Shown here one piece after another: positions 6,005 to 10,385 of a DNA stretch of 64,000 nt. A program made the translations under genes and the position numbers. The stretch's first letter is position 1; every line of letters begins with the position of its first letter. The DNA is from Pedobacter cryoconitis. Its GTDB lineage: Bacteria; Bacteroidota; Bacteroidia; Sphingobacteriales; Sphingobacteriaceae. Below the pieces are notes generated by a model. The model had not been told where the DNA came from, did no database searches, and saw only the letters and a list, made by a program, of their open reading frames with translations. The stretch covers positions 1,656,888 to 1,720,887 of the forward strand of contig JAAAFW010000015.1 of assembly GCA_019352875.1 (NCBI GenBank), given 5' to 3'.

Positions 6005-8944
6005 ATGCTAATGAAATCTAAATTTATCATGCTATCCTGCTTCCTCCTTACCGGGACGGGTCTGATGGCACAAACCGAGTTTCAGTGGAAAACTGCAACT
6101 TCAGGTGGTTACAGTTATAAATACGTGACTAATGATCCAACAAAAGCACGCTTCTATACTTTGAAAAATGGTCTGTCGGTTATTTTGTCTGAAAATGCGA
6201 AAGAACCGAATATTGAATACCGTATGGCAGTACGTGCCGGAAGTAATACAGATCCCCGCAATGCAACTGGACTCGCCCATTACCTGGAACACTTACTGTT
6301 TAAAGGAACAGATCGTTTCGGTACGATGAATTATGCGAAAGAAAAGCCCCTGCTGGATAAAATTGAAGCTCTTTACGAAAAATACCACGCCACTACAGAT
6401 CCGGCAAAACGTAAAGAGATCTATGCCGAAATAGACAAAACATCTGGCGAAGCCTCAAATTATTCTATCGCGAATGAATACGATAAAATGATGAAATCTA
6501 TTGGCGGACAGTCTACCAATGCACATACCTGGTATGAGGAGACGGTTTACAACGAAGATTTCCCTAGTAATGCAACAGATAAATTCCTGGCATTACAGGC
6601 AGAGCGTTTCCGTAACCCGGTCTTTCGTATTTTCCATACCGAACTGGAAGCTGTTTATGAAGAAAAAAACAGAGGTCTGGATAATGATGCCTGGAAGATT
6701 AGCGAGAAGCTGAACGACTTACTTTATCCAACCCATAATTACGGTCAGCAAACAACAATCGGTACTATTGAGCACCTGAAAAATCCATCTCTGGTTGAGA
6801 TCAGAAAATACTACAACAAATATTATGTACCTAATAATATGGCCGTTGTATTATCCGGTGATTTCAAGGCAGATGAAATGATCAAAAAAGTAGATCTTGC
6901 TTTTAGTTATATGAAAGCAAAACCACTGGAGCTTTATCAGCCGGCACCAGAGAAACCTTTAACTAAAGTACAGGTTGCAGATATCTATGGCCCAAGTGCA
7001 GAAGTTGTGCGTATCGGTTACCGTGGTTTTGCGGAAAACACCAAAGAAAGTATGCTGCTGGATTTAATTTCAAGCATCCTGTCTAATGGTAAAGCAGGTT
7101 TAATGGACATAAACCTGAATAAGGCACAAAAAGTATTAAATGCAGCAGCCGGTTATCAGCAAATGAAGGATTACGGTACATTCATTATGCTGGCTACTCC
7201 TAAACAAGGACAGTCACTGGATGAGGCGAAACAATTGGTTCTGGATCAATTGGCTTTATTAAAAAAAGGTTCTTTTGATGAAAGCCTGATTAAAGCAACT
7301 GTCGCCAACAGCAAGCTTAGCTTACTGGAAAATTTTGATAACAATGGTTTCCGTGTAGAGGCGATTACCAATGAGTTTATCATGAACCGCGGTACTAAAT
7401 GGGATCAGTCACTGAATACACCTGATGCCATGGCTAAAGTAAGTAAAAAGGAAATTGTAGATTTTGCTAATAAATTTTTTAGCAATGATTATGTAGTAAT
7501 CCTGAAACATAAAGGTGAGGATAAAAACATTGCAAAAGTCGACAAACCGGCTATTACGCCTGTGAAGACCAATACTAATGAAACCTCTCCTTTCACGCAG
7601 CAATTACTTGCCCGCACAACCAAACCTATCGAAGCGAAATTTCTGGATTATCAGAAAGATCTGAACTTTGGTAAAGTAGGCGTTGCTGATGTAGTAACTA
7701 TTGAAAACAAAGAAAACAGTATTTTTAATTTAACTTACCGTTATGATCTGGGTTCATGGAATTCTAAACTGGCTCCTTACGCGGCAAGATACCTCACGTT
7801 TCTGGGTACAGATAAATACACAGCTGAAGAGATTAGCAAGCAGTTCTATAATATCGCCTGCAGCTATTCATTTACAGTAAACAATGACGTGACCACTATC
7901 AGAATTTCCGGTCTTCAGGAAAATTTTGACCAGGCAGTAAAATTGGTTGAACATGTTTTTGCAAATTGCAAGCCGGATGAGCAAGCGCTGAAAGAAATGA
8001 AAAGCAGCGTACTGAAATCAAGGGAAAATAATAAGCTGAACAAGGCTGCTATTTTATCTGGTCTAATGAGCTACGCACAATATGGCGCTCAGAACCCATT
8101 CAATTATGCGCTGACCAATGCAGAAGTTGAACAGATGACTTCGGCCGAATTACTGGAGATCCTGCATAATATAAACAACCTGAAACACAGTATCAATTAT
8201 TACGGCCCGCAGACACTGCAGGCATTTACTGGTGACATTGCAAAAATCCACGTTCTTCCTGCTTCTTTTATGGAAGCTCCGGCTGCACAGAAATTCAACT
8301 TTACGCAGACCACAGACAACCAGGTTTATTTTGCTGATTATGACATGGTACAGGCAGAAATTCGCTGGTTAAGAAATGATGGCGTGTTCAATGCTGCTGA
8401 TGCAGCTAAAATAAACCTGTTCAACAGTTATTTTGGTGGCGGTATGGGTTCAATTGTTTTCCAGACTATCCGTGAATCAAAAGCACTGGCTTACTCTACC
8501 TACGCATTTTACTCTACGCCTGATAAAGCAGGTAAAGACAACTCCATGATTGCCTATGTGGGTACACAAGCCGATAAAATGAATGAGGCTGTGGCAGGTA
8601 TGAACGAATTACTGAATGTACTGCCGGAATCTGAAAAGAATTTCGAGTCTTCCAAATCAAATTCACTAAATGCGCTGGAAACATCACGTGTGACCAAATT
8701 TGATGTTATTAACCATTATTATGCAGACAAAAGACTAGGTCTGGAGCAAGATTCAAGAATCGCAGAATTCAACGGAATAAAACCTTTAAAATTTAGCGAT
8801 ATCAAATCTTTTCATGACAGTAAAGTATCTAATAAGCCATTCAGCTATTGTATAGTAGCCTCGAATAAAAATGTTAAAACTGCTGACATGGAGAAATTCG
8901 GGAAACTGAATACCTTAAGCCTGGAGCAGATTTTCGGTTATTAA
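6005..8944 (+). CDS. M16 family zinc metallopeptidase (two-lobed, secreted)
   Basis: A 979-residue insulinase-type peptidase. It begins with a signal peptide (hydrophobic residues 7-20, probable cleavage after LMAQ), so it is periplasmic or outer-membrane associated. The inverted zinc motif HYLEH occurs at residues 92-96, with the distal Glu in ELEAVYEEKNR. The inactive C-terminal half follows, with a SIVFQTIRESKALAYSTYAFYS segment characteristic of the family's second lobe. Two close ATGs exist, 6005 and 6011; both leave a good signal peptide. The gene stands alone between surE (divergent) and a strong terminator. Substrate is unknown; the family cleaves unstructured peptides in a closed chamber. 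Confidence 0.94.
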   Translation: MLMKSKFIMLSCFLLTGTGLMAQTEFQWKTATSGGYSYKYVTNDPTKARFYTLKNGLSVILSENAKEPNIEYRMAVRAGSNTDPRNATGLAHYLEHLLFKGTDRFGTMNYAKEKPLLDKIEALYEKYHATTDPAKRKEIYAEIDKTSGEASNYSIANEYDKMMKSIGGQSTNAHTWYEETVYNEDFPSNATDKFLALQAERFRNPVFRIFHTELEAVYEEKNRGLDNDAWKISEKLNDLLYPTHNYGQQTTIGTIEHLKNPSLVEIRKYYNKYYVPNNMAVVLSGDFKADEMIKKVDLAFSYMKAKPLELYQPAPEKPLTKVQVADIYGPSAEVVRIGYRGFAENTKESMLLDLISSILSNGKAGLMDINLNKAQKVLNAAAGYQQMKDYGTFIMLATPKQGQSLDEAKQLVLDQLALLKKGSFDESLIKATVANSKLSLLENFDNNGFRVEAITNEFIMNRGTKWDQSLNTPDAMAKVSKKEIVDFANKFFSNDYVVILKHKGEDKNIAKVDKPAITPVKTNTNETSPFTQQLLARTTKPIEAKFLDYQKDLNFGKVGVADVVTIENKENSIFNLTYRYDLGSWNSKLAPYAARYLTFLGTDKYTAEEISKQFYNIACSYSFTVNNDVTTIRISGLQENFDQAVKLVEHVFANCKPDEQALKEMKSSVLKSRENNKLNKAAILSGLMSYAQYGAQNPFNYALTNAEVEQMTSAELLEILHNINNLKHSINYYGPQTLQAFTGDIAKIHVLPASFMEAPAAQKFNFTQTTDNQVYFADYDMVQAEIRWLRNDGVFNAADAAKINLFNSYFGGGMGSIVFQTIRESKALAYSTYAFYSTPDKAGKDNSMIAYVGTQADKMNEAVAGMNELLNVLPESEKNFESSKSNSLNALETSRVTKFDVINHYYADKRLGLEQDSRIAEFNGIKPLKFSDIKSFHDSKVSNKPFSYCIVASNKNVKTADMEKFGKLNTLSLEQIFGY

Positions 8945-8990
8945 CCGACCTTGCTAAGGGCATCTGATTTTGGGTGCCTTGCCATGAAAT

Positions 8991-9028
8991 CCCGTTATCT
9001 TTTTTAGAAGGTAACGGGTTTTTTTTTC
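8991..9028 (+). terminator. Intrinsic terminator after the M16 peptidase gene
   Basis: A ten-pair stem (8991-9000 with 9009-9018, one G-U pair) is followed by about nine T. It starts 46 bases after the stop codon. Confidence 0.9.
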
Positions 9029-9152
9029 TTGAGTGCTCAAGGTTTTGTTCGGGTCTTGTTCGGGTCACGTTCGGGTGCGGTACTGTTCAACTAGTACCAG
9101 AACCCACAATATACCCACAGCTAACCCACACATACCCCACATAGAACCCACA
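9028..9152. repeat. 11-bp-periodic interrupted palindrome (two repeat arms around a hairpin)
   Basis: This non-coding stretch has a small palindrome at 9028-9041 (CTTGAG-TG-CTCAAG), three GTTCGGGT units at 9047, 9058 and 9069 (exactly 11 bp apart), a hairpin with stem 9079-9084 / 9093-9098 (GGTACT / AGTACC), then five (A/C)CCCACA units at 9102, 9113, 9124, 9135 and 9146 (again exactly 11 bp apart). The GGGT cores of the left arm and the ACCC cores of the right arm are mirror-placed about one centre near 9089, so the whole forms a long hairpin of 4-bp helices separated by 7-base loops. It encodes nothing I can support. From memory, similar tandem GTTCGGGT arrays occur in other Pedobacter-like genomes, but I cannot check that here. 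Confidence 0.75.
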
Positions 9153-9227
9153 AAGTAGTGTTCAATATATGCGTATCTGTATAGATTAGTATTTAAGACG
9201 AAAGCAAGACCAGCAGCATACTCCAAT

Positions 9228-9281: not shown

Positions 9282-9467
9282 TTACAGTGACTTGATCCAG
9301 TCTACCAGCTCATCGCGGCTTTTCCCGGTCTTTTGCTGTAATCTTCCATACAGTTCATCATCTTTTCCTTCTTCATATTTCAGATCGTCATCGGTTAAGT
9401 CGCCGTAAGCTTGTTTAACTTTACCTTTTAACTCGTTCCATTTTCCTTTTAATTCTAATTTGTCCAT
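9282..9467 (-). CDS. CsbD-like general stress protein
   Basis: A 61-residue, very hydrophilic protein: [19 protein letters not shown], then [15 protein letters not shown] and a C-terminal helical DELVDWIKS. This is the CsbD family (PF05532), small helical proteins induced by general stress in many bacteria but without a known biochemical activity. The gene is monocistronic, with its own terminator at 9228-9257, and is divergent from the thioredoxin-fold lipoprotein gene. The spacer holds two palindromes that could be regulatory. Confidence 0.93.
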
Positions 9468-9634: not shown

Positions 9635-10336
9635 ATGAAAAAAATTTACTGGTGCTTTTTATTGCTGCCCCTGATGTTATGTGCTTCCTGCACGATGATG
9701 GTGAAGACAATTGCCAAATCTGCTGCGAAGAATTATGATGACCATGTTGATCTTCAGATTAACCAGCTGAAACTCGTGGATACCCTGGGAAAAACAGCTT
9801 CCTTTGAACAACTGTATGCTGGAAAAACAGTGTATCTCTATCTCTGGAAATCTCCTATTCTTCTCCCTCCTGACGACAAGGATCCCCTTTATAAAGGATT
9901 AAAAGACCGCTTTACAAAATACGACGATGTTGTTTTTATCAATCTTTATACCGGAAGTAAAGAAGAGGACTGGAAGCTTATCCACGGATTACAGCAAAAA
10001 AATGTGAAAGCTTTTCATTTAGCAGAAGACCCAGCCAATACAGCATTTCGTGAGTTATACGGTATCTCTACTTCACCACAAATTGTGAGTAAAGACGGAC
10101 ATATCCTGGGTTTCAAAGGTCCCTTACCATCTGATAAACTTGTCGTTGACTATGCCTTATATCAGGCGAGAAATGGAATGAATGCAACTGCCTCGACTAA
10201 GATTTTGATTAAAGGAGTTAATAAAGAAGAGCGTCTGAGTACTGATGAGCTGAAGAGTTGGTATAGTGCTCATTTCGGGAAAGACCCTAATGAAAAGATC
10301 AATGCCAGCATTTCTAATAAAGGTGCTGATAATTAA
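9635..10336 (+). CDS. Thioredoxin-fold lipoprotein lacking a CXXC active site
   Basis: A 233-residue product if started at the ATG at 9635 (an in-frame ATG at 9623 adds four residues). MKKIYWCFLLLPLMLCASC is a signal peptide ending in a lipoprotein-like Cys. The mature part reads like a TlpA/AhpC-type domain: a KTVYLYLWKSP strand where such proteins normally carry WCxxC, then VVFINLYTGSKEEDWK, AFRELYGISTSPQIVSKDG with the conserved cis-Pro position, and HILGF. Since the two redox cysteines are replaced (WKSPI), it is unlikely to be an oxidoreductase. It ends at a shared terminator with acs. Role unknown. Confidence 0.75.
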   Translation: MKKIYWCFLLLPLMLCASCTMMVKTIAKSAAKNYDDHVDLQINQLKLVDTLGKTASFEQLYAGKTVYLYLWKSPILLPPDDKDPLYKGLKDRFTKYDDVVFINLYTGSKEEDWKLIHGLQQKNVKAFHLAEDPANTAFRELYGISTSPQIVSKDGHILGFKGPLPSDKLVVDYALYQARNGMNATASTKILIKGVNKEERLSTDELKSWYSAHFGKDPNEKINASISNKGADN

Positions 10337-10377
10337 AAAAAGGCCCTTTCTGCAATTGCAGAAAGGGCCTTTTTTTA
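10335..10377. terminator. Two-way terminator between convergent lipoprotein gene and acs
   Basis: A 30-base perfect palindrome (10341-10370) is flanked by A residues on the left and T residues on the right, so it can stop transcripts from both converging genes. Confidence 0.93.
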
Positions 10378-10385
10378 TTGTGTAA

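What the first reader, a model, noticed from the sequence alone, without database searches (positions are those of the whole stretch)
9028..9152. Non-coding 11-bp-periodic mirrored repeat around a hairpin
Three GTTCGGGT units (9047, 9058, 9069) and five (A/C)CCCACA units (9102, 9113, 9124, 9135, 9146) each repeat with exactly 11-bp spacing, and the GGGT and ACCC cores are mirror-symmetric about a hairpin centred near 9089. The element could be a helically phased protein array, a structured RNA or a mobile-element relic. It lies between a strong terminator and the next gene, with no coding potential. The regularity is seen directly; function is inference. My memory of similar arrays in related genomes is unverified.
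Basis: partly seen in the sequence, partly recalled or inferred. Interest (0 to 1): 0.65.

Follow-up and report, generated by a model that had tools for sequence, protein, structure and literature searches.

The report
Dispersed 11-bp phased palindromic repeat array
A short non-coding stretch whose short DNA words recur exactly once per turn of the double helix belongs to a scattered family of such arrays in Pedobacter bacteria, and comparison with a sister species suggests that the words change more slowly than the gaps between them, perhaps because an unidentified protein docks on them.

Summary
It is no singleton: the window's Pedobacter genome has 14 BLAST matches, itself included, and 11 places with three or more CCCACA units at exact pitch. 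Of 8 loci mapped into P. antarcticus, 4 keep the array; there CCCACA cores changed at 3 of 114 bases, spacers at 14 of 57, and length changes are whole 11-bp units. Against this, three other P. antarcticus copies have eroded cores (8 of 90 against spacers 7 of 45, not significant; pooled 11/204 against 21/102, p = 1e-4). Other Pedobacter carry the same pitch with other words: GGTAA in 43 of 144 genomes, TGTG in 24 of 144 with a noisy control, ACACCC in G015. Best reading: REP/MITE-like intergenic palindromes whose arms are helically phased binding arrays for a cooperative DNA-binding protein (inferred, unidentified). Rivals: selfish hairpins, Rho-utilisation sites. No Rfam family, no RAYT hit in this genome, no plasmid or phage match. 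New variant of a known kind.

The parts
6005..8944 (+). Upstream gene, M16 peptidase family (979 aa), used as the anchor for the same locus in other Pedobacter
   Evidence: ORF; Pfam Peptidase_M16 and Peptidase_M16_C
8987..9029 (+). Intrinsic terminator of the M16 gene (15-nt arms 8987-9001/9008-9022, then a T tract); conserved in P. antarcticus, so outside the variable stretch
   Evidence: Inverted repeat I1; alignment L205/L206
9043..9222 (+). Stretch not shared with P. antarcticus at this locus, holding the element (true element ends not known)
   Evidence: BLAST blocks (L205 1-1630 and 1811-3401; L205 position 1 = window 7413)
9047..9076 (+). Left array: GTTCGGGT at 9047, 9058, 9069, 11-bp pitch
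   Evidence: GTTCGGGT-like units 11 bp apart in 14 of 14 neighbouring pairs up to 25 bp in the loci of both species
9079..9098 (+). Central hairpin GGTACT / AGTACC with 8-nt loop, symmetry centre near 9089
   Evidence: RNA fold
9102..9152 (+). Right array: (A/C)CCCACA at 9102, 9113, 9124, 9135, 9146, 11-bp pitch; C-rich, G-poor strand
   Evidence: core divergence at orthologous copies and at further copies; base composition
9282..9467 (-). Next gene, 61-aa ORF convergent to the M16 gene (CsbD-like by recall, not searched)
   Evidence: ORF; conserved in P. antarcticus

Best explanation
The feature is one copy of a dispersed REP/MITE-like palindromic element, intergenic in the copies examined, whose arms are built from 11-bp modules: a short core word (here CCCACA, read TGTGGG on the other strand, and GTTCGGGT) followed by a 3-4 bp free spacer. 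One module spans one turn of (negatively supercoiled) DNA, so all cores of an arm face the same side. Shown: dispersal, phase, slower change of cores than of spacers at orthologous copies, gain and loss in whole 11-bp modules. Inferred: a sequence-specific protein binds the cores of an arm head to tail and cooperatively, on double-stranded DNA, making a short nucleoprotein patch between genes; the two inverted arms would let two such patches face each other. What the patch does (shielding of neighbouring transcription units, nucleoid organisation, or a step of element dispersal) is unknown; my guess is organisation or insulation of intergenic DNA rather than promoter control. Different Pedobacter lineages use different core words on the same pitch.
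For: Orthologous copies, this genome against P. antarcticus, 4 loci: core 3/114 bases changed, spacer 14/57, 120 bp left of the array 80/474, 60 bp right of it 64/229, surrounding DNA 425/3801; core against spacer p = 1.8e-5; CCCA 0 of 76. Adding three more P. antarcticus copies of one subtype: core 11/204, spacer 21/102, p = 1e-4. Spacing of neighbouring intact CCCACA up to 25 bp: 11 bp 39 and 10 bp 9 of 48 in this genome; 11 bp 15 and 10 bp 3 of 23 in P. antarcticus, the other 5 at 21-22 bp, where a mutated unit lies between. Whole-module length changes: one module fewer at L193/L221 and one extra at L202/L225 in P. antarcticus, one missing in 3 of 39 TGTG-type rows (L277, L280, L281). Same pitch with other words in other species. 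None of 54 copies examined lies inside an ORF of 100 aa or more (3 lay at a locus edge); at a 90-aa cut two ORFs of 91 and 93 aa overlap copies at L196 and L202, which I take as chance. Spacers of three orthologous array pairs are 34 of 47 identical, of 21 non-orthologous pairs 37% on average, which speaks against copy-to-copy homogenisation as the general cause of core likeness.
Against: No binding protein was identified. The orthologue test rests on 4 loci and 19 units of one species pair, with units labelled by their G000 sequence; if the spacer count is halved to allow for that, p = 0.017. Three further P. antarcticus copies (L226, L227, L228) have cores changed at 8 of 90 against spacers 7 of 45, p = 0.26. 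By my count, 31 of 44 units are intact in 9 P. antarcticus loci, against 60 of 61 in the G000 loci, which were however found by likeness to an intact array. At 4 of 8 mapped loci the array is absent, elsewhere or replaced in P. antarcticus, so no single copy is essential. 10-bp spacings occur, and the one family with a strict 7+4 site binds a 3-bp spacer about 20-fold worse (PMC4832192). Two G000 copies (L196 first array, L201) share all spacers, so recent copying does occur. In 80 other Pedobacter loci lag 11 is not the commonest repeat period. Several core words within one genome would need several proteins or a relaxed one. Two G083 copies changed a core on both arms at once (L270, L275), which pairing or arm exchange explains more simply.
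Confidence: 0.4

Rival explanations
1. Selfish REP/MITE-like DNA hairpin: the palindrome itself is the unit recognised (as single strand or cruciform) by a transposase supplied in trans; modules expand and contract by slippage, arms are kept alike by fold-back repair, and old copies erode.
For: Dispersed, intergenic, palindromic, lineage-specific copies; near-perfect long arms in several G083 copies, with changes on both arms at once in L270 and L275; in 30 distinct TGTG-type copies arms match slightly more than in row shuffles (554 of 690 cells against a mean of 540, 3 of 1000 reaching it; 18 both-sided cells against 11.3, 5 of 1000; relatedness not controlled); array absent or replaced at 4 of 8 mapped loci; eroding copies in P. 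antarcticus; a transposase element sits in the centre of one palindrome (L278).
Against: Cores change more slowly than spacers at orthologous copies, and the 60 bp to the right of the array, where the fold-back partner lies in several copies, change fastest. Most spacer columns of the TGTG family do not match between arms. No PF01797 (RAYT) hit in this genome or G023. No clean empty site was found, so target-site duplication could not be judged.
Confidence: 0.28
2. Rho-utilisation (rut) site: the C-rich, G-poor strand is transcribed and its regularly spaced CC runs load Rho, giving Rho-dependent termination behind the intrinsic terminator; the inverted arms make it work in both directions or mask it.
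For: 9091-9168 has 27 C against 7 G and C runs every 11 nt; 74 of 127,844 78-nt windows of this 64 kb (both strands) have C minus G as high, overlapping windows of this array among them. A published predictor uses 78 nt, C over G, cytosines every 11-13 nt (PMC6407284, passages seen). By eye the GGTAA, TGTG and ACACCC arrays also have regular C runs on one strand.
Against: Rho is thought to need pyrimidine-C dimers at tolerant spacing (recalled); here the A of CCCA was unchanged in 19 of 19 orthologous units and intact units lie 10 or 11 bp apart. By inspection, where both neighbours point the same way the C-rich strand is antisense to them at L193, L195, L202 and L200 and sense at one L196 copy. 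Convergent placement is only mildly enriched: 13 of 51 against 73 of 537 background gaps of 150 bp or more, p = 0.035.
Confidence: 0.2
3. Structured non-coding RNA whose helices are interrupted by internal loops once per A-form turn (11 bp).
For: L111 folds as 7-bp helices with 3-4 nt loops every 11 nt; of 200 shuffles one folds at least as well as the window array, z -2.33.
Against: No Rfam family; DNA right of the array diverges fastest between orthologues; identical cores along an arm are not needed for pairing.
Confidence: 0.07

Closest known systems
REP / REPIN / BIME elements (TnpA-REP associated; abstracts in listings)
   Same: Short intergenic palindromes dispersed in one species' genome, lineage-specific sequence, IS elements landing in them
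   Different: Larger (125 bp or more), built of 11-bp modules, no RAYT hit in this genome
MITEs carrying tandem repeats, e.g. BrickBuilt of Porphyromonas gingivalis (PMC4596501: abstract and the first part of one section read)
   Same: Bacteroidetes; dispersed intergenic copies (19 in one strain); tandem modules inside an inverted-repeat element
   Different: BrickBuilt has 23-nt units without spacers and IS5-like ends; here 11-bp pitch, free spacers, no ends matched to an IS
OmpR/PhoB-family response-regulator sites (PhoP: 7-bp motif direct repeats with a 4-bp spacer; PMC4832192, passages read)
   Same: 7 + 4 = 11-bp direct repeats; PhoP binds three and four motifs in a row better than two
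   Different: Not in promoters only, up to 5 units, inverted second array; 10-bp spacings occur; regulator unknown
Plasmid centromeres of 11-bp iterons bound by ParR (parC of R1; recalled, not read)
   Same: Clusters of 11-bp direct repeats either side of a centre
   Different: Chromosomal, many copies, inverted arms; par genes not searched
Rho-utilisation sites (PMC6407284, passages read)
   Same: C over G, cytosines every 11 nt
   Different: Strict word and strict spacing; placement not clearly behind co-directional genes

Membership tests
REP elements | Associated REP transposase (RAYT, Y1_Tnp PF01797) in the genome | tested here: not met
   0 matches in G000 and G023; one match with a stop codon in G015
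REP elements | 20-40 bp palindromes (PMC3733652, abstract in listing) | tested here: not met
   Modular arms over about 105 bp from first to last unit here, longer in other copies
MITE | Terminal inverted repeats matching an autonomous IS, with target-site duplication | tested here: inconclusive
   G015 copies have ATATGGC..GCCATAT ends by eye; no clean empty site at L199/L222 or L205/L206
OmpR/PhoB-type tandem site | Direct repeats of a 7-bp motif with a 4-bp spacer | tested here: inconclusive
   11-bp spacing in 39 of 48 (G000) and 15 of 23 (G062); 10 bp in 9 and 3, which a strict 4-bp spacer would not allow; 21-22 bp in 0 and 5. All units of the window copy meet it
OmpR/PhoB-type tandem site | Located in promoters, bound by a response regulator | tested here: inconclusive
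   Placement close to background: 24 tandem, 14 divergent, 13 convergent of 51; binding not testable here
Rho-utilisation site | 78 nt, C over G, cytosines every 11-13 nt | tested here: met
   27 C, 7 G, pitch 11 at the window copy
Rho-utilisation site | Rho-dependent termination of a transcript | not testable with these tools
   No transcript data
Known structured RNA | Match to an Rfam family | tested here: not met
   None over 9028-9152 up to E = 5, apart from weak hits to the terminator that end by 9031; none over the elements in 20 related loci at gathering thresholds
parC-type centromere | Cluster of 11-bp iterons next to parM/parR genes | not tested
   Window neighbours are an M16 peptidase and a 61-aa ORF; par genes not searched

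The most novel reading that the evidence does not exclude
Pedobacter chromosomes carry a genus-wide class of intergenic helical-pitch arrays: inverted arms of one-turn modules in which pitch and palindromic layout persist while the core word changes from lineage to lineage. Each word would be the address of a co-evolving cooperative DNA-binding protein that forms short filaments between genes, a site-specific nucleoid or insulation system not described before.
Probability: 0.17. Interest if true: 0.85.

Novelty: new variant of a known kind. Interest (0 to 1): 0.55.

Why it matters
If the arrays are bound as proposed, the 11-bp pitch with a free spacer gives a direct handle on an unknown DNA-binding system in Bacteroidota, and the changing words give a natural series for specificity. 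It also shows that a repeat class can be missed by sequence comparison when only its pitch is shared.

Tried and rejected
Rfam: no family over the element up to E = 5, and only four tRNAs and one SRP RNA, away from the elements, in 20 related loci. RAYT-driven REP: no PF01797 hit in G000 or G023. Heptamer TAACTGA repeats of Beggiatoaceae (PMC4679880, abstract and one section): direct heptamer repeats, so not the same period. Plasmid or phage origin: no blastn match of the window element to plasmids or phages, nor of a TGTG-type element to plasmids. Hairpin covariation in the TGTG family: small excess, relatedness not controlled (30 distinct of 34 extracted of 39 rows, five rows left out for module loss or full symmetry or not matched). 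The lag scan over 80 Pedobacter loci did not single out lag 11: at threshold 22, lags 7, 14, 15, 21 and 22 give 23, 17, 15, 13 and 10 peaks, lag 11 gives 9. The autocorrelation of the conservation profile in the TGTG family is highest at 11 among lags 5-17 but low, 0.157. The family-wide pattern with variable gaps was too loose: the control is of similar size in many genomes; I draw nothing from it except a note. The TGTG pattern had reversed-control hits, by my count from the table 33 in 15 genomes against 119 real hits in 24 genomes. G000 loci L195 and L203 found no counterpart in G062; L196, L197, L200 and L204 were not mapped.

While checking this report I found eroded arrays in P. antarcticus. 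They weaken the case for selection on the cores, so I lowered the best reading from 0.45 to 0.40, the novel reading from 0.20 to 0.17 and interest from 0.58 to 0.55, and raised the selfish-hairpin rival from 0.25 to 0.28.

Paper searches: looked for such repeats; 58, 60 and 61 for Rho, ParR and PhoB sites. Listings only, apart from the papers named. None of the papers listed was recognisably about an 11-bp modular palindrome in Pedobacter; the listings were capped at 10-15 of up to 502 papers.

Full report
What is there. Three GTTCGGGT units start at 9047, 9058 and 9069, a small hairpin GGTACT/AGTACC lies at 9079-9098, and five (A/C)CCCACA units start at 9102, 9113, 9124, 9135 and 9146. The GGGT and ACCC cores are exactly symmetric about 9089. 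Lag-11 self-matches number 64 in 9028-9152 against 28.5 +/- 4.6 in 20,000 shuffles, none reaching 64. The stretch lies between the intrinsic terminator of an M16 peptidase gene and a convergent 61-aa ORF.

It is a family. The window lies in a 4.93-Mb genome (G000) where the 125-bp stretch has 14 BLAST matches, itself included. Three CCCACA units at exact 11-bp pitch occur as 21 overlapping pattern hits, which I group into 11 places in G000, with none in the other 58 genomes searched and none for the reversed control in G000. The copies share the order GTTCGGGT units, a short centre, 3-5 CCCACA units, and often TGTGGGT and ACCCGAAC units that can fold back on them. A second layout in the same genome has GTTAGNNT, TTGGCCTA or ACCCGA units; neighbouring ACCCGA lie 11 bp apart in 20 of 22 cases up to 25 bp. 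A third word (GGGTA with CAA) occurs at L083. In the window plus ten 20-kb stretches at preset positions (264 kb), strong lag-11 peaks fall at two places, the window array and L083; at threshold 23 there are four lag-11 peaks, none at lags 7-10, 12-14, 16 and 17, and one at lag 15.

The sister species. A protein search with the M16 gene gave 80 loci, nearly all named Pedobacter, 1.72 Mb, the best 80 of at least 578. The nearest is P. antarcticus ATCC 51969 (98% protein identity), which I take to be handle G062: a 100% identical match on a contig of equal length. At the window's own locus P. antarcticus has a related but different element with ACCCGA units in place of the arrays. Seven of nine further G000 loci could be placed in G062. 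Counting the window locus, 4 of 8 loci keep the CCCACA array (L201, L193, L198, L202) and 4 do not: absent or rearranged at L199 and L194, not in place at L192 (a different, eroded array lies a few hundred bases off), replaced at the window locus.

The main result. At the four loci that keep it, substitutions are 3 of 114 in the CCCACA cores, 14 of 57 in the spacers, 80 of 474 in the 120 bp to the left, 64 of 229 in the 60 bp to the right, and 425 of 3801 in surrounding, mostly coding DNA. The first four core positions (CCCA) show 0 of 76 changes; the A/C position before the core differs at 4 of 19. The 60 bp to the right, where the fold-back partner lies in several copies, diverge fastest, so pairing does not easily explain why these cores are kept. 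Spacers of three orthologous array pairs are 34 of 47 identical, against 37% in 21 non-orthologous pairs. Length changes are whole modules: one 11-bp unit fewer at L193/L221 and one more at L202/L225 in P. antarcticus. Intact neighbouring cores up to 25 bp apart lie 10 or 11 bp apart: 9 and 39 of 48 in G000, 3 and 15 of 23 in G062; the remaining 5 of G062 are 21-22 bp apart with a mutated unit between.

The result against it. Not all copies are kept so well. By my count, 31 of 44 units are intact in 9 P. antarcticus loci, against 60 of 61 in the G000 loci, though the latter were found by likeness to an intact array. Three P. antarcticus copies of one subtype without a mapped partner (L226, L227, L228), compared with the G000 copy L201, have cores changed at 8 of 90 and spacers at 7 of 45, p = 0.26. 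Pooled with the orthologue test the contrast stands at 11 of 204 against 21 of 102, p = 1e-4. So selection on the cores is likely at some loci and absent or weak at others.

Other words, same pitch. The reversed control hit G015 by accident (16 hits; one hit in G052) and led to a separate family of about 150-bp elements with ACACCC units (also L153). GGTAA at 11-bp pitch, four units with up to one mismatch, occurs in 43 of 144 Pedobacter genomes; the reversed control hits 2 genomes. TGTG at 11-bp pitch occurs in 24 of 144, in several genomes as two inverted arms whose starts lie 51 bp apart, but here the reversed control also hits 15 genomes by my count. An alignment of 39 TGTG-type rows (some loci are in it twice) shows one architecture in many genomes, with three copies lacking exactly one 11-bp module (L277, L280, L281). 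In 30 distinct copies the TGTG cores are nearly constant, the spacers vary and mostly do not match between arms; arms match slightly more than in row shuffles, and two G083 copies changed a core on both arms together. Against a general claim, in the 80 loci lag 11 is not the commonest period.

Placement. Of 54 copies in six genomes, none lies inside an ORF of 100 aa or more; 24 lie between tandem, 14 between divergent and 13 between convergent ORFs, 3 at a locus edge (the window copy counts as tandem there because the 61-aa ORF is below the cut). Convergent placement is mildly above background gaps of 150 bp or more (13 of 51 against 73 of 537, p = 0.035). This does not point to promoters, nor strongly to terminators.

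Mechanism. A word that changes slowly, a spacer that is free, a pitch of one turn and changes in whole turns are what a protein binding head to tail along one face of DNA would leave behind. OmpR/PhoB-type regulators read direct repeats; PhoP reads 7-bp motifs with 4-bp spacers and can extend beyond a dimer (PMC4832192, passages), and a period near 11 bp is commonly related to the pitch of negatively supercoiled DNA (PMC4132750, abstract). I therefore take the element to be a REP/MITE-like palindrome whose arms are phased protein-binding arrays, about 40% likely. The binding step and its consequence are inferred. The selfish-hairpin reading explains dispersal, arm likeness and erosion but not the slow cores at orthologous copies. 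The Rho reading is attractive because the strand meets a published rut criterion, but the unchanged A and the rigid spacing go beyond what Rho is thought to need (recalled). The RNA reading has only a modest fold (z -2.33) and no Rfam family.

Known or new. The kind (dispersed intergenic palindromes, sometimes with tandem modules) is known: REPs and BrickBuilt are the nearest. The 11-bp modular build with changing words was not seen in the listings, which cover only an open-licence library and show only the top papers. I call it a new variant of a known kind.

Noticed in passing
L278 2080-3780 (genome G083): A DDE transposase element (ends GGCTGTTGCAGAA / TTCTGCAACAGCC) sits in the centre of one TGTG-type palindrome, apparently with a 4-bp duplication ACGT; insertion of IS elements into REPs is known (PMC1525189, abstract).
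   Followed up: partly
L077 8185-10158 (G000 C22): A pair of transposase ORFs (integrase core rve; helix-turn-helix), IS3-like by recall, lies between two copies of the window's element.
   Followed up: partly
L101 12990-13300: P. antarcticus carries a different, related element at the window's exact intergenic spot: replacement of the intergenic stretch without a clean insertion signature.
   Followed up: yes
L226 339-390, L227, L228, L207 (P. antarcticus G062): Several arrays in P. antarcticus have cores with single changes, often C to T, while those found in the window's genome are almost all intact.
   Followed up: partly
L074, L075 (genome G023): A longer repeated element (over 500 bp shared by two copies) holds CGGGTACT-type 11-bp units and, further on, GGACAATTGC-type units of 10 bp.
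   Followed up: no
L101-L180 (80 loci): Self-match peaks at lags 7, 14, 15 and 21 are commoner than at lag 11, suggesting heptamer repeats in these genomes too.
   Followed up: no
G324, G328, G300 (genus g39), G221, G240, G248 (genus g27): Unusually many loose GGTAA-gap-GGTAA-gap-GGTAA hits, far above control, in a few genomes outside Pedobacter; period not determined.
   Followed up: no
window 10331-10379: A strong inverted repeat on both strands gives many sub-threshold Rfam hits; probably a bidirectional terminator between the two convergent ORFs.
   Followed up: no
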